A stretch of DNA of 64,000 bases from Actinoplanes teichomyceticus ATCC 31121 (lineage in GTDB: Bacteria > Actinomycetota > Actinomycetes > Mycobacteriales > Micromonosporaceae): assembly GCF_003711105.1 (NCBI RefSeq), contig NZ_CP023865.1:3001001-3065000 (forward strand), written 5' to 3'. This document shows positions 3,909 to 37,557 of this stretch, in pieces (within the stretch, counting starts at the first letter, position 1; each line of letters opens with the position of its first letter). Below the pieces are notes generated by a model. That model saw nothing but the letters and a program-made list of their open reading frames with translations. It ran no database searches and had not been told where the DNA came from. The translations under genes and the position numbers were made by a program.

Positions 3909-6878
3909 TTACCGGACGAGCTGGAAGATGGTCACGCCGGGGGCGTCGTAGAAGACCTTCCAGTCGGGGGAGGCGCGCAGGCCCTGTTCCAGCGAGGCGA
4001 ACGAGCCGTGCGGCAGGGTGCCGAAGTAGTCCGTCTGCCGCTCCATCGACTCGCTGACCACCAGGTAGTCCACCGGGTGGTTCATCGCCTCGATGTACTG
4101 TTTGATGTCGGCCAGCCGGGAGCTGTTCAGGTTGCCGGTGAAGTACGGGTCGCCGATCAGCGAGATGTCCACCGAGACGTGACCCCGGTTGTACGAGCCG
4201 TAGTTCGCCTTCAGCTTCGTCGGGAAGTTCGGCGCCACCAGGATGATCCCGGCGCCCGGCGTGGCGTGCGCGTACAGGTGCTCCGCGGCGGTGATGTCGC
4301 CGCGGCCGACCAGGTGTACCCGCAGCTGGCCCTGCAGACCCTGCAGCCCGGCGAACATCAGCACCGCGACCAGCAGCCCGGAGCCGGCCGTCAGGAGCCG
4401 GCCGGGGCGCGGGTTCCCGCCCGCCCACAGGGTGGCCACCAGCAGCGCGGTGAACGGCAGCGAGAACGCGTACACCCGGTAGATCGCCTCGCCGCCGTAG
4501 CTGCCGCCGGCCAGCGTGGTGATCGGCAGGTACGCCAGCAGCGCCGCGACCAGCACGGTGCCGAGCCGGTGCCGGGCCCGCCAGACGGTGAGCAGCGCCG
4601 CCGCCCACAGGCCCAGCGCCAGGCAGCGCGCCACCAGCGCGGAGAACTCCTGCTCCGGGGTGCTCCAGGTGCTGGCGTTGCCGGAGGCGTTGGCGAACAG
4701 GTCGAAGTCGAAGATCTGGTACTGGCTGTTGACCGAGCCCATCCGCGGGGCCAGGAAGCCGAGCAGCACCACGCCGAGAACGACGGTGAGCAGCCGTGGG
4801 CGCAGCACGCCCAGCACCGACAGGCCGACCAGCGGCACCATCATCATCACCGGGGTGAGCTGGTGCGACACCACGATCGCGGCGTAGACGACGGTGGCCG
4901 CTGCGGCGGCCCACAGCCGGGTGGCGCGAGCCGGTTCGGGGCGGTCCGGCATGTCCCGGGTCAGCCAGGCGCGGAGTCGCCCGGCGCGCGGGAACCGGGT
5001 GATGTGGCCGGTCGGCGCGCCGGTCAGCCAGCGGACGACGATCAACCAGAAGGCCAGCATCAGCGGATAGACGTAGCCCTGCGGGGAGAAGTAGCCGATG
5101 TCCACCCACATGGCCAGCTGGGTGAGCAGCGCGGCCAGCGCGACGACCCGCCGGTTCGCGGTGAACTGCCGCAGCAGCGCCGCCGTCATCAGCAGGTTGA
5201 CCAGCATGCACACCAGCGACGACCAGGCGGCGAACGAGATCGGGTCCAGCCCGGAGACGTGCGACAACAGGGCCATGACCGCGAAGAAGCCGGGCCACTG
5301 CTGGTAGATGTCGGTGGAGTCGATCAGGTGGCCGTGGTCGCGGATCAGCTCGACGACGCCGAGGTGCTTGTACGTCCACGCGTACTCGATGGTGCCGCTC
5401 AGGATCGGCACGGTGCCCTGCATGATGGCCGGCACGGCGAGGATGCCGGCGGTCAGCACGAGCGGGCGGGCCCGGCCGAACAGCTCGAAGCCGAAGCCGA
5501 GGCCGAGCAGGCCGAGCGCGATCAGGAACGGCACGCCGAGCGAGGCGGACATGCCGTAGGAGTCGATGGCCGACGGGCTGGTCCGGACCAGCGTGATGAT
5601 CCACAACGTGGCCGCGGCGGGGAGTGTGACCAGCGGCAGCACCGTGCGCAGCCGGTCGGCGGGCGGCTCGGCGGGGCCGCTGCGGCCGGGCCGGGACCAC
5701 CGCACGCCGGCCCGGGACAGTCGCACCGCCCGCACCGCGCCGGTGAGCAGGGTGGCGGCGGCGAGAGCGCCGAGCGCGGCGGCCGGGTGCCAGATGTGCA
5801 GCCAGAGGGTGAGCACGGCCGGGGCGACCGCGAGGGAGAGGCTGAGCGCGGTGGCCAGGGCCCAGGCGGTGAGCCGGTTGCGCACCGTGGCGAACGACAT
5901 CGCCGCCGCGCCCGGGCCGGCGCCGATCAGCACGAGCAGCAGCAGCACCCGGACGCCGCCGTGCGGCACCAGCTGGCCCGCCACACCGGCGAGTCCGGCG
6001 AGAACGGCCGCCGCCGCGAACTCCGGGCGGGAGTCCGGGCCGGGCGCGTCGGCCGGCCCGGCGGTGGGCGCGGGGACGGGCGCGGGGACGGGCGCGGCGG
6101 TGGGCGCGGGTCGGACGGGCCCGGCGGTGGGCGCGGGCGTCGGCCGCACCGGCACGGGCGCCGCCGGCAGCCGGATGACCTGGGTCTCCTGCGCCTCCAG
6201 CCGGGGGAGCACCTGGGTGTCCGCCTCCGGCCGGGGGATCAGCCGGGTGTCCGCCTCCAGCCGGGGGAGCGCCTGGGTGTCCGCCTCCGGGCGCGGGATC
6301 ACCTGGGTGGCGGCCTCGTCCAGGCGGGGCCCGCGCGCGGCGGGGACGGTGAGCCGCACCGTCTCCTCGCCGATCGACCGATTCGTCGGCCACGAGGTGG
6401 TCGCCGCCGTGGCGGGCCGCGCCGCTTCCGGCCTCCCGGCCGCGGCCGGCGGTGCCGGGTCGGCCCGGCGTGCGGCGACGGGCGGTGCCGGGGCGGCCCG
6501 GCGTGCGGCGACGGGCGGTGCCGCCTCCGGCTTCCGGGCCGTGACGGGCGGTGCCGGGGCGGCCCGGCGTGCGGCGACGGGCGGTGCCGCCTCCGGCTTC
6601 CGGGCCGTGACGGGCGGTGCCGGGGCGGCCCTGCGTGCCGCGGCGGGCATTACCGCCTCCGGCTTCCTGGCCGCCGCGATCCGCGCCGCCGGGATGACCA
6701 CGGTGGCCTCCGGGTCGTGGCCGGCCGGCGCGGTGGGATTCCCGCCCGAGCGGATGACCACGGTGGCCTCCGGGTCGTGGCCGGCCGGCGCGGTGGGACT
6801 CCCGCCCGAGCGGATGACCACGGTGGCCTCCGGATCCTGCGATCTGTCCTGGAATGCGGGCGAGCGGTGCTGCGCCAT
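3909..6878 (-). CDS. Large polytopic membrane protein, glycosyltransferase-like, with repetitive N-terminal region
   Basis: The protein has 989 residues. Residues ~1-290 are low-complexity: three copies of DPEATVVIRSGG or close variants, three copies of a ~22-residue Lys-Pro-Glu-Ala/Ala-Arg-Arg unit, then a run of TQVIP, TQALP, TRLIP and TQVLP motifs. From ~residue 300 onward about a dozen hydrophobic segments alternate with short loops, ending in an ~150-residue soluble domain. The layout resembles GT-C-fold membrane glycosyltransferases and polymer synthesis proteins; no diagnostic catalytic motif was confirmed. The ATG at 6878 is preceded by GAGGGAGG and beats an upstream in-frame start. 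It is the last gene of the glycosyltransferase operon, about 50 bases after the preceding stop. Confidence 0.8.
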   Translation of the reverse strand: MAQHRSPAFQDRSQDPEATVVIRSGGSPTAPAGHDPEATVVIRSGGNPTAPAGHDPEATVVIPAARIAAARKPEAVMPAAARRAAPAPPVTARKPEAAPPVAARRAAPAPPVTARKPEAAPPVAARRAAPAPPVAARRADPAPPAAAGRPEAARPATAATTSWPTNRSIGEETVRLTVPAARGPRLDEAATQVIPRPEADTQALPRLEADTRLIPRPEADTQVLPRLEAQETQVIRLPAAPVPVRPTPAPTAGPVRPAPTAAPVPAPVPAPTAGPADAPGPDSRPEFAAAAVLAGLAGVAGQLVPHGGVRVLLLLVLIGAGPGAAAMSFATVRNRLTAWALATALSLSLAVAPAVLTLWLHIWHPAAALGALAAATLLTGAVRAVRLSRAGVRWSRPGRSGPAEPPADRLRTVLPLVTLPAAATLWIITLVRTSPSAIDSYGMSASLGVPFLIALGLLGLGFGFELFGRARPLVLTAGILAVPAIMQGTVPILSGTIEYAWTYKHLGVVELIRDHGHLIDSTDIYQQWPGFFAVMALLSHVSGLDPISFAAWSSLVCMLVNLLMTAALLRQFTANRRVVALAALLTQLAMWVDIGYFSPQGYVYPLMLAFWLIVVRWLTGAPTGHITRFPRAGRLRAWLTRDMPDRPEPARATRLWAAAAATVVYAAIVVSHQLTPVMMMVPLVGLSVLGVLRPRLLTVVLGVVLLGFLAPRMGSVNSQYQIFDFDLFANASGNASTWSTPEQEFSALVARCLALGLWAAALLTVWRARHRLGTVLVAALLAYLPITTLAGGSYGGEAIYRVYAFSLPFTALLVATLWAGGNPRPGRLLTAGSGLLVAVLMFAGLQGLQGQLRVHLVGRGDITAAEHLYAHATPGAGIILVAPNFPTKLKANYGSYNRGHVSVDISLIGDPYFTGNLNSSRLADIKQYIEAMNHPVDYLVVSESMERQTDYFGTLPHGSFASLEQGLRASPDWKVFYDAPGVTIFQLVR
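6170..6320 (-). repeat. In-gene repeat encoding TQV(I/L)P motifs
   Basis: About five tandem ~30-bp units, each containing a variant of CCTGGGTGTCCGCCTCC, encode successive TQVIPRPEAD-type segments of the membrane protein. Each unit keeps the reading frame. The same short peptide motif recurs in the tail of the MMPL protein at 31741-37557. Confidence 0.75.
6425..6845 (-). repeat. In-gene tandem repeats at the 5' end of the membrane glycosyltransferase gene
   Basis: Two repeat types are present. Between ~6470 and 6650 near-identical 60-66 bp blocks encode KPEA..PPVAARRAAPAPP segments. Between ~6695 and 6845 three near-identical 66-bp blocks encode PEATVVIRSGG plus a spacer. All preserve the frame, so copy number can vary without breaking the gene. 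Confidence 0.8.
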
Positions 6879-6928
6879 CTCGGAAGGGCCTCCCTCTGGT
6901 CTGCGTGCGGCCGGGACCCGTCCTCCGC

Positions 6929-8242
6929 TCACGGGTGCTGGCGGAGCCTGGCCCGGGCGGTCCGCCGACCCCGCAGGTAGGCACGGGGGCCCGCGATCAT
7001 GCCGCGCCGGTTGGCGCCGAGCAGCTCACGCGGGAAGTCCGCGCGCAGGGTGGCGACCCGCAGGCTGTCCGCGCCGGTCAGGTCCCGGAACGCGACGGGC
7101 GCCAGCTTGAGCAGCTGCCAGATCAGCCCCGGCCGGCTCATCAGCAGACTGGTGTACGCCGCGGTCAGCCCGGTGCCGTAGCCGACCATCTGCTGGTGCA
7201 GGCCGGCGAGGTCGCGCCGGTGGTAGTGGTGGGTGACCGCGGTCGGCTGGTAGACGATCGTCCCACCGGCCAGCAGCACCTGGGTGAACGCCAGGGTGTC
7301 CTCGGAGCCCATCGCCGGGGTCCCGGCGCCCAGCGCGGTGTCCCAGCCGCCGATCCGTTCGATCACGCCGGGCCGGAACGTCATGTTCGCCCCGGTGCCG
7401 AACGGCGGCAGCGGGTAGAGCGGGCTCTGCCGGTGCGCGCTGTGCGGGCCGAACACGTCCGGCCGGAAGCCGCGGCCCTTGCTGTGCCCGCCGAACTGCT
7501 CGAACCAGAGCTGTGCACGGGTCTCCAGCTCGGCCGGGACGATCACGCCGGACACCACGTCGGCCTCCGGATGCTCGGCCAGCGCCCGGGCCACCTCGGC
7601 CAGCCAGTACGGGTCGGCGACCTCGTCGTCGTCGATCCAGGCCAGGATCTGCCCGGGGCAGGCGGCGACCGCGGCGTTGCGGGCGAACGACAGCCCGGCC
7701 TTCGGCTCCCGCAGGTACTCCACCGGCCCGCGGCGGGCGGCCGAGCGCACCACCTCGGCGGTCGCCCCGGTGGCCGGGGCGTTGTCGACCACCAGGATCC
7801 GCAGGCCCGGGTACTGCTGGGCGAGCAGGCTGTCCAGACAGCGGGCGAGCGCGCCGGGCCGCTCCCGGGTGCAGACCACCACGGTGATGTCCGGCGCGCC
7901 GGCGAGCACGGCCCGCCGGCCGGCCAGGAACTCCGGCTCGGTGGCCGGGGTGAACCCGCCGGCCGGGACCGGCGCGCCGCCGAGCCGCGGGCGCACCACG
8001 TCGCCCAGCTCGTCGTCGACGGCGGCGGCCAGGTCGGCGGGGCTCAGGCCATGATCCGGGACGTCGACCAGGACGCTGCCGAGCGGCTCGGTGAAGAGCC
8101 GGACCAGCGCCCAGGCCTGCTGCACGCGGCGCCCGTCCGGGGTGGTGGCGGCGACTCGCGGCAGCGGCTCGGACAGTTCCAGGTCGAGCACGACGGCGGG
8201 CAGCAGCGCGGCGTCTCTCTCGAAGACCGGAGCGGTGGTCAC
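6929..8242 (-). CDS. Family 2 glycosyltransferase
   Basis: The 437-residue product has an N-terminal extension of ~140 residues and then a GT-A domain. It starts DITVVVCTRERPGAL, with VVDNAPATG and the metal/nucleotide motif AWIDDDEV (a DxD variant). GT2 enzymes transfer sugars from nucleotide donors to growing glycans on the cytoplasmic side. The GTG at 8242 is chosen because it overlaps the TGA of the upstream glycosyltransferase (GTGA); an in-frame extension upstream would lie wholly inside that gene. It is third in the four-gene operon running from 10291 to 3909. Confidence 0.88.
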   Translation of the reverse strand: MTTAPVFERDAALLPAVVLDLELSEPLPRVAATTPDGRRVQQAWALVRLFTEPLGSVLVDVPDHGLSPADLAAAVDDELGDVVRPRLGGAPVPAGGFTPATEPEFLAGRRAVLAGAPDITVVVCTRERPGALARCLDSLLAQQYPGLRILVVDNAPATGATAEVVRSAARRGPVEYLREPKAGLSFARNAAVAACPGQILAWIDDDEVADPYWLAEVARALAEHPEADVVSGVIVPAELETRAQLWFEQFGGHSKGRGFRPDVFGPHSAHRQSPLYPLPPFGTGANMTFRPGVIERIGGWDTALGAGTPAMGSEDTLAFTQVLLAGGTIVYQPTAVTHHYHRRDLAGLHQQMVGYGTGLTAAYTSLLMSRPGLIWQLLKLAPVAFRDLTGADSLRVATLRADFPRELLGANRRGMIAGPRAYLRGRRTARARLRQHP

Positions 8243-9192
8243 TGGGCCGCCCTCACCGTGGGGCGCCGGCCGGGCCGGCGCGAACTGACGGTCTCCACGA
8301 CGCCACCGGCTCCGGCGGCGGCGACTCCGGCGACCACGCCGCCGGCCCGCAGCAGCTGGTCCACGCCCTGGCCGCGGGCGGCCCGGCCGAGGTGGCGCAG
8401 GACCGCCCGGGGCAGCGACCACAGGTAGTTCCGCTCGGCGCCAAGCGGGTCGCCGCGGTGCAGGGCGGCCATCTGGACCTTGCCGCGGCCCTCCGCGTAG
8501 CAGCGGCGCACGAAGAACCGGAAGGTGGCCCGCTCGGCCGGCACCTCATGCTGGATGACGGCGGCCGGGACGTACATCCAGTGGCCGCCGGCCTCGCTCA
8601 TCCGCAGGCACAGGTCGGTGTCCTCGGGGCGGTTGCGGTTGCCGAGCTTGCCGAAGCCGAGCCGGAAGCCGCCGACCGCCAGGAACGTCGTGCGGCGGAC
8701 GATCATGTTGGCGGACCAGACGTTGCGGACCGGGGCGGTCTCGGTGGGCATTCCGGCGTACGACCCGCCGACCGCCCAGAGGAACTCGGCTGGCATCCAG
8801 CGCGGCGGGCGACCCGCCCAGGCCGGCACGATCGCGCCACCGGTGCCGACCACGTCCGGGTCGGCGAACGGCTCGATCTGCCGGGCCAGCCAGTGCCGGT
8901 CGGCGATGATGTCGTCGTCCAGGAAGGCGATCAGCGGGGTGGACGCGTGCTCGGCGCCGGTGTTGCGGTTGCCCGAGACGCCCTGGGCGTAGGCGTTCTC
9001 CAGCACCGTGACGCCGTCCAGCTCACGCTTGGCCCGCTCGAACATCGCCGGGTTGTGATCGACCACGACGACGATCTCGTCCGGCTGATGACTCTGGGCG
9101 CGGGCCGACGCCAGCGTGCGCAGTAGGTAGCTCCAGCGCTTCTCGGTGTAGGTGGGGATGACGATCGTGGTCGCGAGGGGGGTTTCTGTCAC
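8239..9192 (-). CDS. Family 2 glycosyltransferase
   Basis: The protein has 317 residues. The GT-A fold is marked by TTIVIPTYTEKRW at the N-terminus, VVVVDHN, SGNRNTGAEHA, the FLDDDI acidic motif and a downstream RPEDTDLCLRMSEAG segment that fits the catalytic-base region. The start is GTG, 28 bases after the stop of the first operon gene. Its stop overlaps the start of the next glycosyltransferase. A role in assembly of the same cell-surface glycan is inferred from the operon; donor and acceptor sugars are unknown. Confidence 0.88.
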   Translation of the reverse strand: MTETPLATTIVIPTYTEKRWSYLLRTLASARAQSHQPDEIVVVVDHNPAMFERAKRELDGVTVLENAYAQGVSGNRNTGAEHASTPLIAFLDDDIIADRHWLARQIEPFADPDVVGTGGAIVPAWAGRPPRWMPAEFLWAVGGSYAGMPTETAPVRNVWSANMIVRRTTFLAVGGFRLGFGKLGNRNRPEDTDLCLRMSEAGGHWMYVPAAVIQHEVPAERATFRFFVRRCYAEGRGKVQMAALHRGDPLGAERNYLWSLPRAVLRHLGRAARGQGVDQLLRAGGVVAGVAAAGAGGVVETVSSRRPGRRPTVRAAQ

Positions 9193-9220
9193 GGGTCCGA
9201 GTGCTTCTGTGAACGGGCGC

Positions 9221-10291
9221 TCAGTCGTCGAGCGTGGCGCGGGTCTGGCTGACGTCCGGGCTCTGCCGGCCGTCGAGGGCCCGGGCCCGCAGCGCCCGCA
9301 GGTCCTGCGTGGGCCGGGTGCCGAGATCGTCGAGCGCGGTGCCGCGCCGCTTCTTGACGTCCTCGGAGCGGCGGGCGCCGATCTCGTCGCGGCGGCCCCG
9401 GTTGAGGTGGGCGCGCGGGTCGACCGGGTGCGGGCCGGCGGCGGCCACGACGTGCGGGCCGGCCGGCCGGCGGGTGCTCGAGGCGGTCAGCTTCGCGGCG
9501 AACGGCACGATGCCGGCCTTGCGGCGGGCCCGGGCCCGGCCGAACTCGCTGAAGATGGTGCGCAGCACGCGGAAGCCGTCGCGGAAGGTGTTCAGGTTGC
9601 TCTGGCCGTGGATGCGCTCGTGCTCGGTGCTGCCGACCTCGCCGACCTTGAGCCGTTCGGCCACCGCGCGGATATTGATCATGGTTTCGATCTCGAAGCC
9701 GTCGCCCCACAGCTTGCTGCCGTCGGCGGGGCGGGGCAGGTCGACGTCCGGCAGGTCGAGCGCCGGCACCACGTCGCGCCAGAAGGCGTTGTAGCCGTAG
9801 CACAGATCGGTGAACTTCGTCTTGAACAGGACGTTGACCACCAGGTTGAGCCCGTCGTTGCCGAGCTTGCGCAGCCGGGTGATGTCGTGGCTGTGGCCGC
9901 CGAAGTTGAACCGGGTGCCCTTGACGAACTGATCGCCACCGGTCAGCTTGGCGACGAACAGCGGGATCTCGGCCGGGTCGGTGGAGCCGTCGGCGTCGAT
10001 CATCACGATGATGTCGCCGGTGCAGGCAGCGAAACCACAGGCCAGCGCGTTGCCCTTGCCGGTCCGGGTCTGCTGCACCACCACCACGTCCGGGCGCAGT
10101 TGCCGCGCCACCTCGACGGTCCGGTCCCGGGAGCCTCCGTCGACCAGGATCACCTCGGTGATCAGGGCCGGCAGCTTCGCGAACACGTGCGGCAGGTTCC
10201 GCTCCTCGTTCAGCGTGGGAATGACAACGCTTACGGTGGGTGAGAGCGGCCGGTTACTGTCTGTGTTCGGATTCAAGTGCGAGAGCTCCAT
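9221..10291 (-). CDS. Family 2 glycosyltransferase, polyprenyl-phosphate sugar transferase-like
   Basis: The protein has 356 residues. VSVVIPTLNEERNL, ILVDGGSRDRTVEVA, GKGNALACGF and IVMIDADGS place it with dolichyl/polyprenyl-phosphate mannose- or glucose-synthase-like GT2 enzymes. They charge a lipid carrier that membrane GT-C enzymes then use. The operon indeed ends with a large polytopic GT-C-like protein. The C-terminal ~90 residues are basic and of low complexity. The ATG at 10291 has GGAAGGGAACGAC just before it, better than the ATG eight codons upstream. It is the first gene of the operon and is read from the control region 10292-10802. Confidence 0.88.
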   Translation of the reverse strand: MELSHLNPNTDSNRPLSPTVSVVIPTLNEERNLPHVFAKLPALITEVILVDGGSRDRTVEVARQLRPDVVVVQQTRTGKGNALACGFAACTGDIIVMIDADGSTDPAEIPLFVAKLTGGDQFVKGTRFNFGGHSHDITRLRKLGNDGLNLVVNVLFKTKFTDLCYGYNAFWRDVVPALDLPDVDLPRPADGSKLWGDGFEIETMINIRAVAERLKVGEVGSTEHERIHGQSNLNTFRDGFRVLRTIFSEFGRARARRKAGIVPFAAKLTASSTRRPAGPHVVAAAGPHPVDPRAHLNRGRRDEIGARRSEDVKKRRGTALDDLGTRPTQDLRALRARALDGRQSPDVSQTRATLDD

Positions 10292-10388
10292 GTCGTTCCC
10301 TTCCGGGGGCGGCAATGCGACCTGTCGCGCGATTTCCCGGAGTTGGGTTCGCCAGACGCTCGCTGCAGGGAATCAAACTAGCAAGGGA

Positions 10389-10401
10389 TTACGTAGCGTC
10401 A
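10389..10401. promoter_or_regulatory. BldD-like site
   Basis: TTACGTAGCGTCA fits the TNAC-N5-GTNA pattern of BldD operators. It lies ~98 bases before the first glycosyltransferase start. BldD is the cyclic-di-GMP-dependent developmental repressor of actinomycetes. The pattern is short, so this is a suggestion only. Confidence 0.35.
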
Positions 10402-10459
10402 ACAGTTCATGGGACGGTTGCGCGTCACAGCTGGCTTAACGGATGAGTCTCCGCGCGCT

Positions 10460-10501
10460 TGTGGCCGCTTTTTCCGAGCGCTCGGAGCGATCTTGGCCAC
10501 A
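10460..10501. promoter_or_regulatory. Nested inverted repeats
   Basis: A perfect 14-bp palindrome, TCCGAGCGCTCGGA (10473-10486), is framed by 7-bp outer arms TGTGGCC (10460-10466) and GGCCACA (10495-10501). The inner AGCGCT core is like that of LacI-family operators. It could equally form a hairpin. Confidence 0.5.
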
Positions 10502-10503
10502 GC

Positions 10504-10518
10504 GTTACGCTCCGTAAC
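10504..10518. promoter_or_regulatory. BldD-like palindrome
   Basis: GTTAC-GCTCC-GTAAC is a perfect 5-bp inverted repeat with a 5-base spacer and fits TNAC-N5-GTNA. It lies 115 bases from the similar site at 10389. Two such matches in one control region make chance less likely, but binding is untested. Confidence 0.4.
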
Positions 10519-10802
10519 TATCGGGGCCTCATCGTGTGAGTCTTCGGTGCTTGTCCGGCCAATGCCAGATATCGGAATCGATCACCGTGTACTTGGACAG
10601 GGGCGGCAATCCGGATGGATATCCAAAAAGTCACGTACCCGGCGGTTGCCGCTACGCTGCGTGTAAGCGGACCGGAGATGGTGTGACGGTGGGTCCGGTG
10701 CGCCTCGCCGCGCGGCCCGGCGCCGGGTGGCATGCTGGTGGTCGTGCGAATCGGTCGGCGTGCCACCCGAGGCCCCAGCGGCTGTCCGCCGGCGGGGTGC
10801 CG

Positions 10803-10961
10803 ATGACGGCCGGCGAGACCCGCTGCGTGTGCGGGCACCCGCTGGCGGCGCATCAGCACTACCGTCCGGGCACCGAGTGCGTGACGTGTCCGCCCGGGCA
10901 GTGCCGGCGGTTCCGGCGTTCGCGCTGGTGGCGGCGCTGGCTGACGGGCGGCGCGAGCTGA
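10803..10961 (+). CDS. Small cysteine-rich protein (putative zinc knuckle)
   Basis: The product has 52 residues. The core reads CVCGHPLAAHQHYRPGTEC, then CPPGQC, followed by an Arg/Trp-rich tail. The CxC...H...H...C...C...C spacing suggests a small metal-binding knuckle, and I believe similar short proteins are widespread in actinomycetes with no known function. The ATG at 10803 is chosen because the recognisable sequence begins right after it; only a weak GGGG site precedes it. It lies upstream of the sulfotransferase but with its own spacing, so an operon is uncertain. Confidence 0.6.
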   Translation: MTAGETRCVCGHPLAAHQHYRPGTECVTCPPGQCRRFRRSRWWRRWLTGGAS

Positions 10962-11007
10962 GGCCGGGTGGCCGGTCCGGGCCGCGAAAACTCCCGGGTC
11001 GCGAAAA

Positions 11008-11024
11008 CCTACAAGTTCTGTAGG
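11008..11024. promoter_or_regulatory. 17-bp inverted repeat in the sulfotransferase promoter region
   Basis: CCTACA-AGTTC-TGTAGG is a perfect 6-bp inverted repeat 42 bases before the sulfotransferase ATG. Its right arm overlaps a possible -10 hexamer TAGGCT (11021-11026), so it could be an operator. A direct repeat CGCGAAAAC (10983 and 11000) lies just upstream. Confidence 0.5.
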
Positions 11025-13636: not shown

Positions 13637-14587
<951 letters not shown>

Positions 14588-30135: not shown

Positions 30136-31545
30136 TCACCAGGCCACGGAGGCGTAGTCCTTGAGGAAGCAGCCGTACACGTCCTCGCCCTGCTCGCCGC
30201 GCACGATCGGGTCGTACACCCGGGCCGCGCCGTCCACCAGGTCCAGCGGGGCGTGAAAACCCTCGTCGTGCAGCCGCATCTTGGTCGGGTGCGGCCGCTC
30301 GTCGGTGATCCAGCCGGTGTCGACGCTGGTCATCAGGATGCCGTCGGCGAACATGTCAGCCGCGCTGGTGCGGGTCAGCATGTTCAGCGCGGCCTTCGCC
30401 ATGTTCGTGTGCGGGTGCCCGGCGCCCTTGTAGCCGCGGCTGAAGATGCCCTCCATGGCGGAGACGTTCACCACGTACCGCCGGGGGAACGGCGACGCGG
30501 TCATCGCCGCCCGCAGCCGGCTGACCAGGACGAACGGCGCGGTCACGTTGCACAGCTGCACCTCGAGCAGCTCCAGCGGGTCCACCTCGTGCACCCGGTC
30601 GCTCCAACTGTTGGTCGGCGTGGTGTCCGGCACCAGGCCGCCCGCGTCGATCTGCACCGACCGCGCGGTCAGCGCCAGCTCGGTGACCTGCTGCGGGGTC
30701 AGCGTCGTGGTCCCGGCGGTCAGCACCGCCGCCGGCGAGCTGCCGGCGCCGCCGAAGTACTCCAGCTCCGGCAGCTTCCCGCCGGGCAGCGGCTCGGCCT
30801 CGGCGGCCGCGATCGCCGAGTACGCCCCGGCCGTGCGCCGCACCGTCTGCGCCGCGTTGTTGATCAGGATGTCCAGCGGCCCGCGCGCCGCCACCGAGTC
30901 GGCCAGGCCCACCACCTGCGCCGGGTCACGCAGGTCGATCCCGACGATCCGCAGCCGGTGCAGCCATTCCGAGCTGTCCGGCATCGCGGTGAACCGGCGC
31001 ACCGCGTCGTGCGGGAACCGCGTCGTGATCGTCAGGTCCGCGCCGTCACGCAGCAACCGCAGCGCGATGTACATGCCGATCTTGGCGCGGCCGCCGGTGA
31101 GCAGCGCCCGCCGCCCGGTCAGAACGGTCCGGGCCTCCCGGCGCGCATGGTTCAGCTTCGCGCAGTCCGGGCAGAGCTGGTGGTAGAACGCGTCCACCAC
31201 GGTGTAGCGCTGCTTGCACACGTAACAGCCGCGCGCCTGCTTCAGGATCCCGGCCGTCGCGCCCGCCGTCGCGCTCTTCAGCGGGATGCCGGCGGTCTCG
31301 TCGTCGATCCGCCCCGGCGCCCCGGTCGCGGTCGCCGCGGTCACCGCCCGGTCGTTGGCGAGAACCGCCTGCCGGCGATCCCTGCGCCGCTGCAGCTTCG
31401 CGGTCTTGAACAGCCCGGCCGTCGCGCGCCGCACCCGTACCGCGTCCGGATGCTCCACCGGCAGAGCCTCCACCTCGGCCAGGACGGCGAGGCAGACCGC
31501 CAGGCGGTCCGGGTCCACGCCCACGGTCGGGTCACTGCCGGTCAT
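30136..31545 (-). CDS. Short-chain dehydrogenase/reductase with N-terminal zinc ribbon
   Basis: The protein has 469 residues. Residues ~1-100 are helical and of no known family. CYVCKQRYTVVDAFYHQLCPDC near 110-131 forms a two-knuckle CxxC..CxxC zinc ribbon. An SDR Rossmann domain follows (~147-469) with LLTGGRAKIGMYIA for the dinucleotide loop, ILINNAAQTVRR, VVNVSAMEGIFSR carrying the catalytic Ser, and a late NMAKAALNML Lys segment. The Tyr of the usual YxxxK is not evident: the segment reads HTNMAK. The ATG at 31545 has GAAGGAG eleven bases before it. The metal-site/SDR fusion is unusual. Confidence 0.85.
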   Translation of the reverse strand: MTGSDPTVGVDPDRLAVCLAVLAEVEALPVEHPDAVRVRRATAGLFKTAKLQRRRDRRQAVLANDRAVTAATATGAPGRIDDETAGIPLKSATAGATAGILKQARGCYVCKQRYTVVDAFYHQLCPDCAKLNHARREARTVLTGRRALLTGGRAKIGMYIALRLLRDGADLTITTRFPHDAVRRFTAMPDSSEWLHRLRIVGIDLRDPAQVVGLADSVAARGPLDILINNAAQTVRRTAGAYSAIAAAEAEPLPGGKLPELEYFGGAGSSPAAVLTAGTTTLTPQQVTELALTARSVQIDAGGLVPDTTPTNSWSDRVHEVDPLELLEVQLCNVTAPFVLVSRLRAAMTASPFPRRYVVNVSAMEGIFSRGYKGAGHPHTNMAKAALNMLTRTSAADMFADGILMTSVDTGWITDERPHPTKMRLHDEGFHAPLDLVDGAARVYDPIVRGEQGEDVYGCFLKDYASVAW

Positions 31546-31694
31546 TCGTGATTTCTCCTTCTCGGCCGAACTGTCGCCAGGCACTGTATTACCTCGCGGT
31601 CCTATCGGCCGCCGCGCGCGTCCGGCAAGGGGTCCGGGTCACCTCGCCTTCCGGTACGACGGGGGCGGGGTGCGTCCGTCGCGTGCTCCCGTCG

Positions 31695-31730
31695 CCGATG
31701 CGCGCCCCGCCGGGCTGGGGCGCGCATCGG
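31695..31730 (-). terminator. Hairpin after the MMPL gene
   Basis: CCGATGCGCGCCCC (31695-31708) and GGGGCGCGCATCGG (31717-31730) form a perfect 14-bp stem with an 8-base loop. It lies ten bases past the stop of the minus-strand MMPL gene. There is no U-tract. Confidence 0.75.
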
Positions 31731-31740
31731 CGGGTGCCGG

Positions 31741-34700
31741 TCACCGGGTCGGGTCCGGGTCGCTGTCGTGGCCGGCGCGTTGGTCCGTGGGGCGGTCCGG
31801 TGCGGCCGGGTCGTCGGTGCCCGGACGCGGGCGTCGCGGCCCGGGGGAGTGGTCGGCGAGCGTCGCCGGGCGCCGTCCGGCCGCCGGTGGCCGGCCACCG
31901 CTCAGCCAGTCGTCCAGCGTCTGCGGCCGGGGTGCCGCCGAGCTGACCGGCTCGTCGCCGGTGGGCTGGTCCTGCGGGTTCGATGGACGCGGTGTGGCCG
32001 CGCTGGCGGGCCGGTCCGCCCCGAGGTGCGGGGCCGCGCTGACGGGCCGGTCCGCCCCGGGGTGCGGGGCCGCGCTGGCGGGCCGGTCCGCCCCGGGGTG
32101 CGGGGCCGCGCTGGCGGGCCGGTCCGCCCCGAGGTGCGGGGCCGCGCTGACGGGCCGGTCCGCCTCGGGGTGCGGGGCCGCCGAGCTGACCGGGCGGTTG
32201 TCGCCGGGCCAGTCCGCTAGGCTCCGTGGCCGGGATGCGGGCGAGCTGACCGGGCGGTCGTCGCCGGCCGGCCGGTCGCCGAGGCTCTGCGGGCGGCCCG
32301 GCGCCGGGCTGCCGTGCAGCCACTCGTCCAGCGTCTGCGGGCGCCGCGCCGGCGAGGAACTGACCGGCACCGAACTGACCGGAGGCAGGTCACCCAGCGT
32401 CTGCGGGCGGGGTGCCGGGGCCGGGTCGGCTGATCGGGTGGGCGTGGTGCCGTGCAGCCACTCGTCCAGGGTCTGCGGCCGTGGCCGGGAAGCGGGCGCG
32501 CTGACCGGTGCGGCCGTCGGCTCGACCTCCTCGGCCGTCGGCTCGACCTCCTCGGCGTCCGCCTCGTTCGACGCCGCCGGTCGGGCCTTCGGGTCTGCTT
32601 CCGTACCCGGTTCGGTTCCGGCGTCCGCCGCCGCGTCGGGCTCCGTGCGCTCCTCGGCGGGGGTCGCTTCCGCCGACTCCGTCTCACTCTCGGCCGGCGC
32701 TTCGGTCGTGACCTGCGGAGTTTCGTCCGGTGCGAGGTCAGCCGCAGGGCTGGTTGCCGCTCGGGGTGACTCCTCGGCCGTCGCCGGGTCGCCCGGAAGT
32801 CGGTCGCCGGCCGTGGTCGCGGTCGCCCCGGGGTCGCCGGTGGTGGTCGCGGTGGCCTTGGGGTCGCCGGTGGTGGTCGCGGTGGCCTCGGGATCGCCGG
32901 GCGTGGTCGCGGTGGCCGACTCGGCGTCGCTCGTGCCTTTCGCAGCTGGCGAAGGATCAGTCTCGGTCACCGGCTCCGGGGACCGCGGCCCGGTGGCCGA
33001 CTCCTCCGCGGCGCCGGGGTGAGCCCGGCGCCGGGATGGAGCGGGCAGGTCGCCCAGGGTCGCCGGGCGGTTCGGGCGGGTGGCGGGAACACCGGGCGGC
33101 TGCGCACGATCCGCGTCAGCAGGGCCGGTGGGATAGTCTCCGGGCCCGTCATCGTCTCCGGGCCCGTCATCGACGGCGGGACCGGCATCGACGGCGGGCG
33201 ACCCGAGATCGGCGGGTGCCCGCTCCTCGGCTTTCGGGGTGATCCGGTGCTCGCCCGTGGCATCGGTCGCGGTCCCGGCGAGAACCGGTTCGGCATCGGC
33301 CGGCTCCGGCGCAGCCGGGGCGTCAGCCGTGTCCCCGGAGCCGGAGAGCCACGTGAAATCCGAGCCGACCGGAGCGCCCGGAGCCCGGACGATTCCCGCG
33401 ATACGGGGGTCCGACATCCAGGTGAAGGCGTCCGCCACCTCAGCGGGGATCGCACTGACCGGCGCGACCTCGGGCACGAGGACATGTTCCGCCGCGCCCG
33501 TGTCGACGCTCGCCCGGTCGGATCCGGCCACCCGCTCGGTATCGGGGCCGGGGTGGTGCGGGTCGGTGGACGCGCTGTCAGTACCGGCCTGTTCCACCTC
33601 ACCGGTCCCGGAGGTGCTCGGACCCGCAGCCGCGACGGCGGGATCGGCCGGTTCTCCGGACGCGTTGCCGGAGTGGGGCATGTCGCCGGAGCTCGGAGCA
33701 GAGGTCGTCGCTGTCGCGGCGATGTCCTCGCGGTCCCCCTTCGGTGCGTCAGGATCCAGGGATTCGTCTGCCGGCGTTGCGGGCTCCGCCGACGGTGCGG
33801 TGTCCTCGGGGGTTGTGGCGTCCGCTGATGGTGCGGTGTCCTCGGACGGTGCGGGCTCCGGCCGGGTGGCTCCGGTGGTGCTCGCGGCTTCCGGTGGCCG
33901 TGTGGCGTCCGCCGCCGGCGCGGTTGTGGCTTCGCTGTCAGCGTCCGCCGGGGAGTCAGCGTCCGCCGGGGAGTCAGCGGCCGGCTGCTCGGCGTCGCTG
34001 GTACCGGCAGGCACCTCGACGGCGGTTCGGTAGATGGGGAGCACCTGGGTGGCGTCCGAGGTGATCAGCGCGGCGTCGGCGTTTTCGTCCTGACCGCCGT
34101 TCGCGATCTGCGCCACGTCCGGGCTCGGCTGAGCCGCCGCCGATGGACCGTCGGCGGGATCCTGGAGGAACGGCGCCGGGAAGGCGTCCGCCGGCCCGGG
34201 CTCCGGCTCCGGCCCGGGCTCCGGCTCCGGCCCGGGCTCCGGCTCCGGCCCGGGCTCCGGGTCCGGCTCCGACTCCGGGTCGGAAGGCTGGCGGGCGGTT
34301 GTGGGTTCGCTGGAGAGCGAGGTGGGGGGCTCCGCGGCGAGCCCGTTGAGGCTGTACGCCGACGCGGTCTCGGCGAACAGCGGCGGTGCCTCCTCCGGCG
34401 GCGCGGTGCCGGTGCCGATGGCGGCCGACGCCGCGGCCTCCGAGTAGATCGGGAGAACCTGGGTCAGGTCGGCCGTGCCCGGCTCGGCGGGGTGCGGCGC
34501 GGTCACTCCCGCCGCACCCGGGGTGGCGGCCGGAGCCGGTACGCCCGCACCGGTGATCACCGGCATGACCTGCGTCCGGTCGGATGCCGCCGTCGCCGCC
34601 GCGTCGTCGGCGACAGCGGCCGGGGACGAGGCGCCAGCGGACGCCTCCGGGACGTCGGTGGCCACGGCCGGGGTGTCGTCCGACGAGCGGGCCGCGACAG

Positions 34701-37557
34701 CGGATGCCGCCGGGTGAGCGGCGACGGCCGGAGGCTCATCCGGCCCCGCCGACACCGAACCGCCCGGTTCCTCCGCGTCGTCCGCCGCATGGTCCGTTAC
34801 GCCGGGCTCGTCGCCGGCCGGGGGCGGTGTGCTCAGCGAGTCTTGCCCGGCGGCGATGACCGGAAGAACCTGAGTGCGGTCCGAGGCTCCGACGATGTCG
34901 TCCGCACCCGCCCGCGACTGACCGGAAACGATCCCCTCACCGTCGGAGCGACCGTCATCACCCGCGCCCACCTCCGGCGCGGACCCCGCCTGCGGAGACA
35001 GCCCCGATCCGGCCGAGGAACCCGCCCCCGGCGAGGAGGTCGGGCCGCCCGCCGCGGAAGCGACCGGGGACGACGGCGCGACCGAGGAGGACCGAGCGGC
35101 GGCATCCGTGGTGGCGGGAGCGGCGGCCGAAGAGGGCCCGGCCGCATCCGTGGCGGAGGCGGCCTCATCAGCCGTCTCACCAGCGGACTCCTCACCCCAG
35201 ACGATGATCGAGGTCTCGTCCGGCGCGGTGACCAGCTGCTCCTGCCCAGAGCCGAGCACCGGCAGCACGGTCGTCACCGCGTCCGGCCCGGTGAGCGGCG
35301 ACCGCGCCGGACGCTCCGCCGCGCCGGGCAGCTCCAGCACTTCGGTCTCCGCGTCGGCGACCCGTGGCGTCCGGCCGGCGCCCGCCAACTCCGGCGCGCC
35401 GGAGCCCGCCGCCGCGCCGGTGTCCTCGAGCTCGGCGCTCTCCAGCCGCTCCTCACCGGCGTGTTCGGCGAGGCCGGCCCGCTCCTGCAGCCGCCGCAGC
35501 GGCCCGGGCGCCCACCAGGCCGCGTTCCCGAACAGGGCCAGCACCGCCGGCACCAGCAGCATGCGGACGACGGTGGCGTCCAGCACCAGCGCGATGATCA
35601 TGCCGACGCCGACGAAGCGCATCGTGGTCACGGTGGACAAAGCGAACGCCCCGGTGACCACGATGAGCAGCAGGGCGGCCGCGCTGATCACGCGTCCGGT
35701 CCGGGTCAGGCCGGTGGTGACCGCCTCGGCGGTGCTGGCTCCCCGGGTCCGCGCCTCCACCATCCGCGACAGCAGGAACACCTCGTAGTCGGTGGACAGG
35801 CCGAACACCACGGCGGCCATCAGCACCACGATCCCGGCCTCCAGCGGGGCCGGCGTGACGTGCAGCAGGCCCGCCCCGTGGCCCTCCTGGAACAGCCAGA
35901 CGAGCACGCCGAACGTGGCGCTGAGGCTGAGTCCGCTCATCACCACCGCCTTGATCGGCAGCAGGACGGATCCGAAGGCGAGGAACATCAGCAGCAGGGT
36001 GGCGCCGGTGAGCAGCCCGATCATCAGCGGCAGCCGGTCGCCGATCGCGTGCAGGCTGTCGACGTTGCGGGCGGTGACGCCGCCGACCAGGATCTGGCCG
36101 CCGGCCGGTGGCTGGAGCGCGCGGATGTCGTCGACCACTCGCCGGGCCGTGGAGCTGAACGAGTCGGTGCTGCTCAGCGCGGCGTTGAAGACGGTGACGC
36201 CCGCCCCGGCCCCGGCCGGGGTGACCGCGGCGACCCCGGGGATCTTCGCGAGCCGCGCGGCGACGTCGTTCGGCCTGCCGCGCACGACGACCTGCACGCC
36301 GTCGCTGCTGAACTGCGGGTATGAGGTCTTGAGGGTCTCCACGGCCACCCGGGACGGGTCGCCGGCGGGCAGCATCCGCTCGTCGTTCTCGCCGAACCGG
36401 ACGTCGCCGATCGGCAGCGCCAGCGCGATCAACCCGGCCAGGATCGGCAGGACGACCAGCACCGGGCGGCGCAGCACGAATCCGGCGAGCCGGTGCCAGC
36501 CGCCGCCGTCCTCGCGGGGACCGCGCCGGCCGGGCAGCCGGACCGGCAGCTTGTCGACGCGCGGGCCGAGGACGGCCAGGATCGCCGGGAGCAGCGTGAG
36601 CGACAGGAGCATGGCGAGGAAGACGGCGGCGAGGCCGCCGTACGCCAGGGATTTGAGGAAACCCTGCGGGAACAACAGCAGGCCGGCGAGGGCGGTCATC
36701 AGCAGGGTCGCGGAGAAGAGCACGGTACGGCCGGCGGTGGCGACGGTACGGCGTACCGCCTCGGCCGAGGCGTGCCCACCGGCCTGCTCCTCGCGGAAGC
36801 GGCCCACCATGAACAGGCCGTAGTCGATGGCCATGCCGAGCCCGAGCAGGCTGGCCACGTTGACCGCGAACGAGTTGACCTCGTGGGCGAGCGCGATGGC
36901 GTGCAGCACGCCGAGCGCGCCGAGGACCGCGCACCCGCCGACGAGCACCGGCAGTGACGCGGCGACCAGCGAGCCGAAGATGAACAGCAGCAGGAGCAGC
37001 ACCACCGGCATCGAGACCATCTCGGCGAAGGCGAGGTCGTCGGTGGAGCGCTGGTTGGAGGTGTGCGCGAGCGGGATGCCACCGGCCAGTTGAACGGTGG
37101 CGCCGTCGACGGCGAACCGGTCATCGATGTCGTCGTACGCATCGAGTTTGGCCGCGTCGTCGGCGCCGGCCAGGGTGATCACCGCGACCGCGCTGGACCG
37201 GTCCTCGGCGGCGTAGGCCGCGTTCCGGGAGTCCCAGTACGACGTGGTGGCCACGACCGCCGACTCCGGCAGCGACGACAGCCGTTCCCGGATGCGCCCG
37301 GCCAGCCCGGCGTCGTTGATCGTGGTGCCGGTGGCGGGGGTGTAGATGGCGATGACGTCACCGCCCCGGCCGCCGACCGCCTCCGCGACCAGGTCGGCGG
37401 CGCGTGCCGACTCGCTCGTCGGATCGGCGTAGCCGCCCTCGGTGAGCTGTCCGAAAACGCCCATGCCCCAGACTCCGGCGCCGAGGACCGTCACCAGCGT
37501 GACGACCAGCACCTGCCACCGGAGGCGGGCGACCCGCGATCCCCAGCCCGCGAACAC
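31741..37557 (-). CDS. MMPL/RND-family transporter with ~1245-residue disordered C-terminal tail
   Basis: The protein has 1938 residues. Residues 1-~690 form a complete MMPL transporter: two periplasmic domains and 11-12 membrane spans, with the proton-relay Asp-Tyr pairs in LGLGMAIDYGLFMVGRF and VVFGLSTDYEVFLLSRM. Such proteins move lipids or glycolipids outward. The tail is cytoplasmic by topology. It is rich in Ala, Pro, Asp, Glu, Ser and Thr and has four TQV(L/M)P(I/V) motifs, eight RP(Q/A/R)(T/S)LxD motifs, a PEPGPEPE run and a 12-residue repeat (ADRPASAAPHPG). The GTG at 37557 is preceded by GGAAAGGGG. The tail length far exceeds the family norm. Confidence 0.88.
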   Translation of the reverse strand: MFAGWGSRVARLRWQVLVVTLVTVLGAGVWGMGVFGQLTEGGYADPTSESARAADLVAEAVGGRGGDVIAIYTPATGTTINDAGLAGRIRERLSSLPESAVVATTSYWDSRNAAYAAEDRSSAVAVITLAGADDAAKLDAYDDIDDRFAVDGATVQLAGGIPLAHTSNQRSTDDLAFAEMVSMPVVLLLLLFIFGSLVAASLPVLVGGCAVLGALGVLHAIALAHEVNSFAVNVASLLGLGMAIDYGLFMVGRFREEQAGGHASAEAVRRTVATAGRTVLFSATLLMTALAGLLLFPQGFLKSLAYGGLAAVFLAMLLSLTLLPAILAVLGPRVDKLPVRLPGRRGPREDGGGWHRLAGFVLRRPVLVVLPILAGLIALALPIGDVRFGENDERMLPAGDPSRVAVETLKTSYPQFSSDGVQVVVRGRPNDVAARLAKIPGVAAVTPAGAGAGVTVFNAALSSTDSFSSTARRVVDDIRALQPPAGGQILVGGVTARNVDSLHAIGDRLPLMIGLLTGATLLLMFLAFGSVLLPIKAVVMSGLSLSATFGVLVWLFQEGHGAGLLHVTPAPLEAGIVVLMAAVVFGLSTDYEVFLLSRMVEARTRGASTAEAVTTGLTRTGRVISAAALLLIVVTGAFALSTVTTMRFVGVGMIIALVLDATVVRMLLVPAVLALFGNAAWWAPGPLRRLQERAGLAEHAGEERLESAELEDTGAAAGSGAPELAGAGRTPRVADAETEVLELPGAAERPARSPLTGPDAVTTVLPVLGSGQEQLVTAPDETSIIVWGEESAGETADEAASATDAAGPSSAAAPATTDAAARSSSVAPSSPVASAAGGPTSSPGAGSSAGSGLSPQAGSAPEVGAGDDGRSDGEGIVSGQSRAGADDIVGASDRTQVLPVIAAGQDSLSTPPPAGDEPGVTDHAADDAEEPGGSVSAGPDEPPAVAAHPAASAVAARSSDDTPAVATDVPEASAGASSPAAVADDAAATAASDRTQVMPVITGAGVPAPAATPGAAGVTAPHPAEPGTADLTQVLPIYSEAAASAAIGTGTAPPEEAPPLFAETASAYSLNGLAAEPPTSLSSEPTTARQPSDPESEPDPEPGPEPEPGPEPEPGPEPEPGPADAFPAPFLQDPADGPSAAAQPSPDVAQIANGGQDENADAALITSDATQVLPIYRTAVEVPAGTSDAEQPAADSPADADSPADADSEATTAPAADATRPPEAASTTGATRPEPAPSEDTAPSADATTPEDTAPSAEPATPADESLDPDAPKGDREDIAATATTSAPSSGDMPHSGNASGEPADPAVAAAGPSTSGTGEVEQAGTDSASTDPHHPGPDTERVAGSDRASVDTGAAEHVLVPEVAPVSAIPAEVADAFTWMSDPRIAGIVRAPGAPVGSDFTWLSGSGDTADAPAAPEPADAEPVLAGTATDATGEHRITPKAEERAPADLGSPAVDAGPAVDDGPGDDDGPGDYPTGPADADRAQPPGVPATRPNRPATLGDLPAPSRRRAHPGAAEESATGPRSPEPVTETDPSPAAKGTSDAESATATTPGDPEATATTTGDPKATATTTGDPGATATTAGDRLPGDPATAEESPRAATSPAADLAPDETPQVTTEAPAESETESAEATPAEERTEPDAAADAGTEPGTEADPKARPAASNEADAEEVEPTAEEVEPTAAPVSAPASRPRPQTLDEWLHGTTPTRSADPAPAPRPQTLGDLPPVSSVPVSSSPARRPQTLDEWLHGSPAPGRPQSLGDRPAGDDRPVSSPASRPRSLADWPGDNRPVSSAAPHPEADRPVSAAPHLGADRPASAAPHPGADRPASAAPHPGADRPVSAAPHLGADRPASAATPRPSNPQDQPTGDEPVSSAAPRPQTLDDWLSGGRPPAAGRRPATLADHSPGPRRPRPGTDDPAAPDRPTDQRAGHDSDPDPTR
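31990..32190 (-). repeat. 36-bp tandem repeats in the MMPL tail
   Basis: About six units containing CCGGTCCGCCCCGGGGTGCG-type cores encode repeated 12-residue segments (GADRPASAAPHP and variants). The copies are nearly identical in DNA, which points to recent expansion. Confidence 0.85.
32805..32915 (-). repeat. ~30-bp tandem repeats in the MMPL tail
   Basis: Four in-frame units of GGGGTCGCCGGTGGTGGTCG type encode GDPxATATTT segments. Confidence 0.75.
34195..34280 (-). repeat. 18-bp tandem repeats encoding Pro-Glu-Pro-Gly
   Basis: Four to five copies of CTCCGGCTCCGGCCCGGG encode the (EPEPGP)n run in the MMPL tail, probably a stiff extended spacer. Confidence 0.85.

What the first reader, a model, noticed from the sequence alone, without database searches (positions are those of the whole stretch)
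3909..37557. Same TQV(L/I)P short motif repeated in two unrelated membrane proteins 25 kb apart
The disordered N-terminus of the GT-C-like protein (nt ~6170-6320) reads TQVIP, TQALP, TRLIP, TQVLP. The disordered tail of the MMPL protein (nt ~34030-35285) reads TQVLPV, TQVMPV and TQVLPI twice, plus TTVLPV. Acidic residues usually precede the Thr. An array of Thr in acidic context followed by hydrophobics and Pro broadly resembles actinobacterial Ser/Thr kinase sites that FHA domains read. This suggests a shared docking system linking glycan synthesis and lipid/glycan export. The motif match is seen; the phospho-docking role is inference.
Basis: partly seen in the sequence, partly recalled or inferred. 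Interest (0 to 1): 0.75.

Follow-up and report, generated by a model that had tools for sequence, protein, structure and literature searches.

The report
Threonine docking arrays on envelope proteins
Several unrelated membrane proteins of this soil bacterium carry strings of a short threonine-centred tag on tails that probably face the cell interior, and the tag looks like a site that a kinase marks and a phospho-threonine reader grips, which could be how cell-surface building machines are switched or gathered together.

Summary
The recurring unit is [D/E] within three residues before Thr, then I/L/V/M at +3, often followed by Pro. The genome is an Actinoplanes. By this rule the GT-C-like protein has 9 copies in its N-terminus and the MmpL3-related transporter 11 in its tail. 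Strict copies were not reached in 5000 shuffles. In orthologues the signal is on Thr and strongest at +3 (at +2 and +3 in the transporter); Ser shows none at +3. A third, unnamed family turned up: a membrane domain of about 132 residues plus a tail of repeated motifs; 118 of 120 listed relatives have at least three. A mechanosensitive-channel-like protein has 6 copies; DUF881, DUF6350 and Wzz proteins have 2-3. Strict Thr with I/L/V at +3 is what one FHA ligand class demands. The genome has 29 kinase-domain and 4 FHA matches. Phosphorylation and binding remain inference. A private link between the two window proteins is not supported: they belong to a larger set.

The parts
3909..6878 (-). GT-C-like polytopic membrane protein, 989 aa; disordered N-terminus of 283 aa, then about 15 hydrophobic segments by a simple hydropathy count
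Evidence: ORF, start by homologues, no Pfam or NCBIfam match, hydropathy.
6702..6824 (-). first block of the array: three PEATVVI copies, Thr codons at 6822-6824, 6762-6764, 6702-6704
6183..6362 (-). second block: EETVRL, EAATQVIP, EADTQALP, EADTRLIP, EADTQVLP, QETQVI; Thr codons begin (lower coordinate) at 6360, 6306, 6276, 6246, 6216, 6183
   Evidence: conserved Thr columns in orthologues
31741..37557 (-). MMPL-family transporter, 1938 aa, closest to MmpL3; core about aa 1-700, then a 1236-aa disordered tail
   Evidence: Pfam MMPL, PDB hits MmpL3 512 bits vs MmpL5 86 bits, NCBIfam MmpL3 624 bits, below its cut-off of 1400
34048..35346 (-). array in the first 470 residues of the MMPL tail, nine loose-rule sites: TEVLEL, TTVLPV, TSIIVW, TQVLPV, TPAVAT, TQVMPV, TADLTQ, TQVLPI, TQVLPI
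   Evidence: Thr enrichment in the first 300 tail residues of orthologues
13643..14587 (+). Ser/Thr protein kinase (candidate writer, only by proximity)
   Evidence: Pfam Pkinase 145 bits; proximity to the GT-C gene not conserved
6929..8242 (-). family 2 glycosyltransferase next to the GT-C gene
8239..9192 (-). family 2 glycosyltransferase

Best explanation
The arrays are multi-site phospho-threonine docking tails. A PknA/PknB-type kinase phosphorylates the Thr of [D/E]-x-T-x-x-[I/L/V]; FHA domains (FhaA or FhaB most likely) then bind the pThr and the +3 hydrophobic residue. Several copies on one tail give avidity, so envelope machines (glycan transferase, MmpL3-related transporter, chain-length regulator, the new membrane-domain-plus-tail family) are gathered or switched together in a kinase-dependent way. 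Shown here: the motif, its Thr preference and +3 peak, its retention in orthologues, its scarcity in generic disorder, the presence of kinase and FHA domains. Inferred: cytosolic side (family topology), phosphorylation, FHA binding, the effect on activity.
For: Thr and +3: GT-C N-termini (24 non-redundant of 34) T+3 85 observed vs 17.1 expected, S+3 2 vs 6.9; MMPL tail first 300 aa (59 of 63) T+3 164 vs 71.7, S+3 107 vs 108.6. New membrane-domain family: 30 of 30 loci read (of 37 genomes with a match) have 5-31 T sites vs 0-5 S sites; among 120 listed relatives (of 189 hits) 118 have at least three, T exceeds S in 119, S exceeds T in 0; in 104 non-redundant tails Ile at +3 of Thr is 0.12 vs 0.034 background, D/E at -2 0.42 vs 0.156. 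Five aligned array columns in 42 GT-C relatives hold T 19, 18, 17, 20, 26 and S 0, 0, 0, 0, 2, other residues 16, the rest gaps. Generic disorder: ILVM at +3 0.162 for T, 0.151 for S; full rule 135 of 2316 Thr vs 107 of 2353 Ser, Fisher p 0.055. FHA ligand class pTxx[I/L/V] with strict pT (PMC8786283, passages). PknA-dependent sites: acidic residues at -1 and -3 to -6, Leu/Val at +3, and MmpL3 less phosphorylated at 2 sites on PknA depletion (PMC7164672, passages); motif E-x-x-pT in another M. tuberculosis set (PMC5845002, passages). FhaA interactome in M. smegmatis includes MmpL3 and LM/LAM proteins (PMC11898655, passages). In vivo pThr sites of this shape in M. tuberculosis: PknB pTDPLP, FtsQ EEAVpTEPL, Rv2536 EAPpTEVIR, Rv0822c DpTEAIAIP, among many that do not fit (PMC4322841, section 12). 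Genome has 4 FHA matches and 29 kinase-domain matches.
Against: I found no phosphosite or binding data for these proteins: two paper searches for exact words listed nothing relevant and one for Actinoplanes phosphoproteomics listed one unrelated paper. Within this genome alone the Thr-vs-Ser contrast is modest (Fisher p 0.035 GT-C, 0.020 MMPL whole tail, 0.005 its first 520 aa, 0.12 new family); the strong z-scores pool related orthologues. Hydrophobics are also enriched at +1, +2 and +5 of Thr in GT-C, at +1, +2 and +5 in MMPL (+2 as much as +3), at +1 and +2 in the new family; in GT-C N-termini Ser has an excess at +5 (18 vs 6.9). Such spacing would also suit a beta-strand peptide. The acid sits mostly at -2, a position not listed in the PknA motif, and PknA's Pro at +2 is lacking; the StkP motif passage (PMC12077195) puts a symbol at +3 whose wording leaves open whether it means hydrophobic. 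Individual MMPL positions are poorly conserved (T in 34 of 62 at the best column, 8 and 9 at two others). My positive-inside counts were weak or contrary for some proteins. Kinase next to GT-C in 3 of 32 loci. Confidence lowered from a draft 0.57 to 0.55 for the -2 and StkP points.
Confidence: 0.55

Rival explanations
1. Kinase substrate arrays without FHA reading: multi-site phosphorylation adds negative charge that loosens the tail from the membrane or a partner and so tunes the enzyme, with no docking domain.
For: PknA-dependent sites themselves are mostly Thr with acidic upstream residues and Leu/Val at +3, so the motif need not reflect a reader. Only 4 FHA matches in the genome against 29 kinase-domain matches.
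Against: Charge effects would tolerate Ser and would not need a hydrophobic at +3 in each copy; the scarcity of Ser fits a pThr-specific reader well, though a Thr-specific kinase would do the same.
Confidence: 0.2
2. Phosphorylation-independent linear motif: extended T-x-Phi-Phi-P peptides add a beta strand to an unknown cytosolic partner or to each other.
For: Hydrophobics also at +1, +2 and +5 of Thr; Pro at +4 in 0.30 of Thr in GT-C N-termini; GT-C orthologue copies such as TVRIP look strand-like.
Against: Does not explain why Thr is kept and Ser avoided; acidic residues at -2/-3 are as regular as the hydrophobic.
Confidence: 0.14
3. Low-complexity drift: tandem DNA repeats in high-GC genes that copy whatever peptide happens to be there.
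For: The GT-C TQ block and part of the new family's tail are tandem repeats; the database copy P0001 of the GT-C protein is 22 residues shorter than the window's.
Against: MMPL copies differ in codons and flanks; across orthologues linkers diverge while Thr, +3 and the acid stay; generic disorder shows little bias.
Confidence: 0.05
4. Glycosylation or other acceptor sites on an extracytoplasmic tail.
For: Thr-rich, Pro-rich tails; topology of the new family was not settled by my hydropathy count.
Against: MMPL tails and Wzz tails are cytosolic by established topology (recalled); O-glycosylation has no known need for I/L/V at +3 or avoidance of Ser (recalled).
Confidence: 0.04

Closest known systems
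FhaA with phosphorylated MviN (MurJ) and CwlM in mycobacteria
   Same: A membrane or cell-wall protein is marked by PknB and held by an FHA protein, as told in the introduction of PMC11898655 (passages).
   Different: The passages name MviN's pseudokinase domain and CwlM as the clients; here there are up to 31 motif copies per tail, on proteins I did not find reported as FHA clients apart from MmpL3 itself.
FhaA interactome with MmpL3 and LM/LAM proteins (PMC11898655, passages)
   Same: Same pairing of an MmpL3-type exporter and glycan synthesis proteins around one FHA protein.
   Different: Co-purification (direct or indirect) in M. smegmatis; no array motif in the passages I saw. Actinoplanes is not known to make mycolates (recalled).
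PknA-dependent phosphosite motif (PMC7164672, passages)
   Same: Acidic upstream, Thr, Leu/Val at +3.
   Different: An average over single sites, with acid at -1 and -3 to -6 and Pro at -1/+2; here acid is mostly at -2, Pro at +2 is not enriched, and the site is repeated in one tail and retained across orthologues.
StkP juxtamembrane domain with seven phosphothreonines (PMC12077195, passages)
   Same: Long cytosolic juxtamembrane segment with many pThr that affects assembly of a division machine.
   Different: The paper says that none of its seven Thr fits the predicted kinase motif; the arrays here are built of one motif.

Membership tests
FHA ligand class pTxx[I/L/V] | Thr, not Ser, at position 0 | tested here: met
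   T sites exceed S sites in 119 of 120 tails of the new family; five aligned GT-C columns T 100, S 2, other 16, rest gaps
FHA ligand class pTxx[I/L/V] | I, L or V at +3 | tested here: met
   Enrichment is strongest at +3 in GT-C and the new family, with lesser excess at +1 and +2; in MMPL tails +2 (167) and +3 (164) are equal
FHA ligand class pTxx[I/L/V] | Thr is phosphorylated in the cell | not testable with these tools
   needs phosphoproteomics
FHA ligand class pTxx[I/L/V] | bound by an FHA domain | not testable with these tools
   FHA domains exist and show the usual GR...S/H...NGT pattern (my pattern matched 2 of 4, the other two by eye)
PknA/PknB-type kinase substrate | acidic residues upstream and hydrophobic at +3 | tested here: inconclusive
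   hydrophobic +3 met; acid enriched mostly at -2 and -3, while the published PknA motif lists -1 and -3 to -6 (PMC7164672)
PknA/PknB-type kinase substrate | Pro at +2 (PknA motif) | tested here: not met
   P at +2 0.05 in GT-C N-termini, 0.12 in the new family against 0.138 background
MmpL3 (trehalose monomycolate exporter) | closest to MmpL3 among solved MMPL proteins | tested here: met
   512 bits vs 86 for MmpL5
MmpL3 (trehalose monomycolate exporter) | score above NCBIfam equivalog cut-off | tested here: not met
   624 bits against cut-off 1400
GT-C glycosyltransferase | matches a curated GT-C family or fold | tested here: inconclusive
   no Pfam or NCBIfam match; structure prediction unavailable; UniRef names of P0003 and P0012 say RgtA/B/C/D-like

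The most novel reading that the evidence does not exclude
Actinoplanes and relatives run a multivalent, phospho-switchable scaffold at the membrane: one reader (FhaA or FhaB) crosslinks pThr arrays on glycan, lipid-export and other envelope proteins, with the membrane-domain-plus-tail family (up to 31 sites per tail) as hub, forming a kinase-controlled envelope-synthesis cluster. Array copy number is tuned by repeat gain and loss, and similar arrays (DATQYIPP) in a one-helix protein of other actinomycetes point to the same logic class-wide.
Probability: 0.28. Interest if true: 0.85.

Novelty: new variant of a known kind. Interest (0 to 1): 0.6.

Why it matters
FHA proteins of actinobacteria are known to touch many envelope proteins, but I know of no sequence rule that tells which proteins are clients. 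A readable client code, [D/E]-x-T-x-x-[I/L/V] in arrays on cytosolic tails, would let clients be listed from sequence, would give the unnamed membrane-domain-plus-tail family a function, and would make the idea of a phospho-dependent envelope-assembly cluster directly testable with peptides and one gene removal.

Tried and rejected
Literal TQVLP as the conserved unit: rejected, since +1 and +2 vary in orthologues. A genome-wide excess of the word: rejected; outside the two proteins real-frame hits are about as many as hits per wrong frame. A class-wide excess of [D/E]ATQxPhiP: 88 of 148 genomes have it; by eye the reversed-control columns are of similar size (I did not total them), so I take the count as null; only clusters of hits were informative (5 of 6 fetched regions gave a frame with the word, all five from one unnamed genus; L239, from another, gave none under my filter). 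Kinase-GT-C synteny: 3 of 32 loci by catalytic-loop pattern, rejected as evidence (some loci have shorter flanks than 10 kb). Distal MMPL tail (beyond 300 aa): no excess at +3 for Thr (149 vs 136.7). New family outside the Actinoplanes group: 3 weak matches besides the own genome among 148 genomes, with 2, 0 and 0 T sites and 0, 1 and 1 S sites. Side of the tails by positive-inside counting: inconclusive, so I rely on family topology. Structure prediction: not available, hence no fold search. Gene caller limits: my caller picks the best-scoring start and clipped the GT-C N-terminus, so the sample undercounts N-terminal arrays; 80 stretches of 20 kb were used, 1.6 of 8.29 Mb. In one search the upstream stretch of distant relatives may lie outside the true gene start, so absence of sites there is less certain.
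Full report
What was checked. The window is part of a single-contig genome of 8.29 Mb; the named homologues of both proteins are Actinoplanes first. Both genes are real: a polytopic GT-C-like protein at 3909-6878 on the minus strand and an MMPL transporter at 31741-37557 on the minus strand. Strict copies exceed shuffles: 4 vs 0.09 and 4 vs 0.11 expected, 0 of 5000 shuffles each; a looser form gives 5 vs 0.16 (0 of 5000) and 5 vs 0.67 (2 of 5000).

The true unit. Reading orthologues shows that Q and V are not the conserved part. GT-C N-termini of other Actinoplanes read for example PDATAVIS, KDATTRLE, GDKTVRIP, SETRFMP in order. The common rule is an acidic residue within three before Thr and I/L/V/M at +3. 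By this rule the window's GT-C N-terminus has 9 sites (9 of 22 Thr, 0 of 8 Ser; Fisher p 0.035) and the MMPL tail 11 (11 of 108 Thr, 3 of 113 Ser; p 0.020; 9 of 38 and 2 of 53 in its first 520 residues, p 0.005).

Control in generic disorder. I sampled 80 stretches of 20 kb, about 19% of the genome, giving 1350 predicted proteins and 41,402 residues in disordered stretches. There, I/L/V/M at +3 follows Thr in 0.162 and Ser in 0.151 of cases; the full rule is met by 135 of 2316 Thr and 107 of 2353 Ser (p 0.055; 0.16 without the eight sites of the two array proteins in the sample). Only 2 of 1350 sampled proteins have three or more sites, against 9 and 8 in the disordered stretches of the two window proteins under the same filter. 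So the arrays are not a feature of disorder as such. The sample undercounts N-terminal arrays because my gene caller can clip starts.

Thr against Ser in orthologues. In 24 non-redundant GT-C N-termini (of 34) Thr sites with the rule number 85 against 17.1 expected at +3; Ser gives 2 against 6.9. Lesser Thr excesses exist at +1 (42 vs 17.8), +2 (49 vs 17.4) and +5 (48 vs 16.4), and Ser has one at +5 (18 vs 6.9). Of the 34, 27 have three or more sites. In the first 300 tail residues of 59 MMPL orthologues (of 63) Thr gives 164 against 71.7 at +3 and 167 against 72.1 at +2; Ser gives 107 against 108.6 at +3. Beyond residue 300 Thr at +3 is 149 against 136.7. These comparisons pool relatives, so they overstate significance; the aligned columns are the cleaner test: at five array columns of the 42-row GT-C alignment Thr is found 100 times, Ser twice and other residues 16 times, the rest being gaps. 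MMPL positions are less fixed: the best column has Thr in 34 of 62, two others 8 and 9. A site like SGEPTQVLPIV occurs in 11 of the 55 more distant MMPL relatives P0183-P0237, those with names being Nocardia.

A third family. The sample's top hit was the tail of a protein at C1:907552-908736 (395 aa, no Pfam or NCBIfam match) with an N-terminal membrane domain of about 132 residues in which I see three to four hydrophobic segments (three by a simple count). It has relatives in 37 of 40 Actinoplanes genomes, the own one included. In the 30 loci read, the tail has 5 to 31 sites on Thr and 0 to 5 on Ser. Among 120 listed relatives of 189 hits, including Couchioplanes, Jidongwangia, Winogradskya and Nucisporomicrobium, 118 have three or more, Thr exceeds Ser in 119 and the reverse does not occur. 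In 104 non-redundant tails D/E is 0.42 at -2 and 0.31 at -3; Ile at +3 is 0.12 against 0.034 background and 0.01-0.04 at the other places shown; I/L/V/M is 0.41 at +3, 0.34 at +2 and 0.23 at +1. Three weak relatives outside the group have 2, 0 and 0 Thr sites.

Other carriers in the same genome. A mechanosensitive-channel-like protein (6 sites), DUF881 one gene away from garA (3), DUF6350 (3), a Wzz-type chain-length protein (2) and a small membrane protein without a family (2); RodA ends in a similar single site by eye. Several were fetched because they carry TQVxP or lie beside an FHA gene, so this list is not unbiased. In one unnamed genus of another family in the class (my guess from recall is Streptomyces) a one-helix protein carries copies such as DATQYIPPVP before its membrane helix: T 8 and S 0 in the best case, T 2-5 and S 0-2 in the other four.

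GT-C family outside Actinoplanes. In 32 named loci, 12 of 13 Actinoplanes/Paractinoplanes have three or more sites (A. palleronii has 1); of the other 19 only Allorhizocola does, with repeats such as DETTVLPRVPAA, 6 Thr sites and 0 Ser. For distant relatives the stretch I counted may miss the true N-terminus. The array is thus not a fixed part of the family and was either lost or gained within it.

Mechanism. FHA domains bind pThr strictly, one ligand class being pTxx[I/L/V] (PMC8786283, passages). PknA-dependent sites have acidic residues at -1 and -3 to -6 and Leu/Val at +3, and MmpL3 is among the proteins that lose phosphorylation (PMC7164672, passages; PMC5845002, passages). The fit is not perfect: the arrays have the acid mostly at -2 and no Pro at +2, and the StkP motif passage leaves the nature of +3 unclear (PMC12077195, passages). 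FhaA in M. smegmatis co-purifies with MmpL3 and LM/LAM proteins (PMC11898655, passages). Reported in vivo pThr peptides of this shape include PknB pTDPLP, FtsQ EEAVpTEPL and Rv2536 EAPpTEVIR, alongside many that do not fit (PMC4322841, section 12). The window's genome has 29 kinase-domain matches, one of them in the window at 13643-14587, and 4 FHA matches, two of which lie in what I read as the fhaA-fhaB-pstP-rodA-pbpA-pknA-pknB neighbourhood. I therefore think it most likely that these are kinase-written, FHA-read docking arrays (0.55; 0.57 before I reweighed the -2 and StkP points). A kinase-only array (0.20) cannot be excluded because the kinases share the preference; a phosphorylation-free strand motif (0.14) remains because hydrophobics also occur at +1, +2 and +5.

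What is known and what is not. Searches of the held open-access library for the words TQVLP, TQVIP, TQLLP, TQILP, TQVVP, TQVMP and TQYIP, TQMLP, ATQYI, TTVLP, TVRIP, for Actinoplanes phosphoproteomics, for multivalent FHA docking in actinobacteria and for Streptomyces phosphoproteome with FHA listed no paper that by title and abstract start describes these arrays; most subscription papers are not held. The parts (kinase, FHA, pThr client) are known; arrays of this size on these proteins appear to be a new variant.

Noticed in passing
G000:C1:907552-908736 (L143:2552-3736, minus): Unnamed family: N-terminal membrane domain plus a tail with 5-31 copies of the motif in the 30 loci read, in 37 of 40 Actinoplanes genomes; a mannose-1-phosphate guanylyltransferase-like gene (my reading, not searched) lies about 4.7 kb away.
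   Followed up: yes
L237, L238, L240, L241, L242: One-helix protein in another actinomycete genus with 2-8 rule-matching Thr sites such as DATQYIPPVP before the membrane helix.
   Followed up: partly
L096:6072-7466 (minus): DUF881 protein one gene away from garA with ETRYVVPP, ETAYVVPP and ETARVTP in its N-terminal tail before the single helix.
   Followed up: partly
window 3909-6878; P0001; P0238: Database copies differ from the window genome in repeat number: GT-C protein 967 vs 989 aa (one 22-residue repeat), membrane-domain family 378 vs 395 aa: strain variation or assembly collapse.
   Followed up: no
window 31741-37557: MmpL3-related transporter with a 1236-aa tail in a genus not known for mycolates (recalled); substrate unknown.
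   Followed up: no
L196 (Allorhizocola rhizosphaerae): GT-C relative at about 35% identity with its own array of repeats such as DETTVLPRVPAA.
   Followed up: partly
P0198-P0233 (MMPL proteins, the named ones Nocardia): 11 of 55 more distant relatives of the transporter carry a site such as SGEPTQVLPIV once or twice around residues 777-854.
   Followed up: no
L245, L246: Weak relatives of the membrane-domain family share a TTTPF site near the C-terminus, perhaps a single-site relative of the array or a different motif.
   Followed up: no
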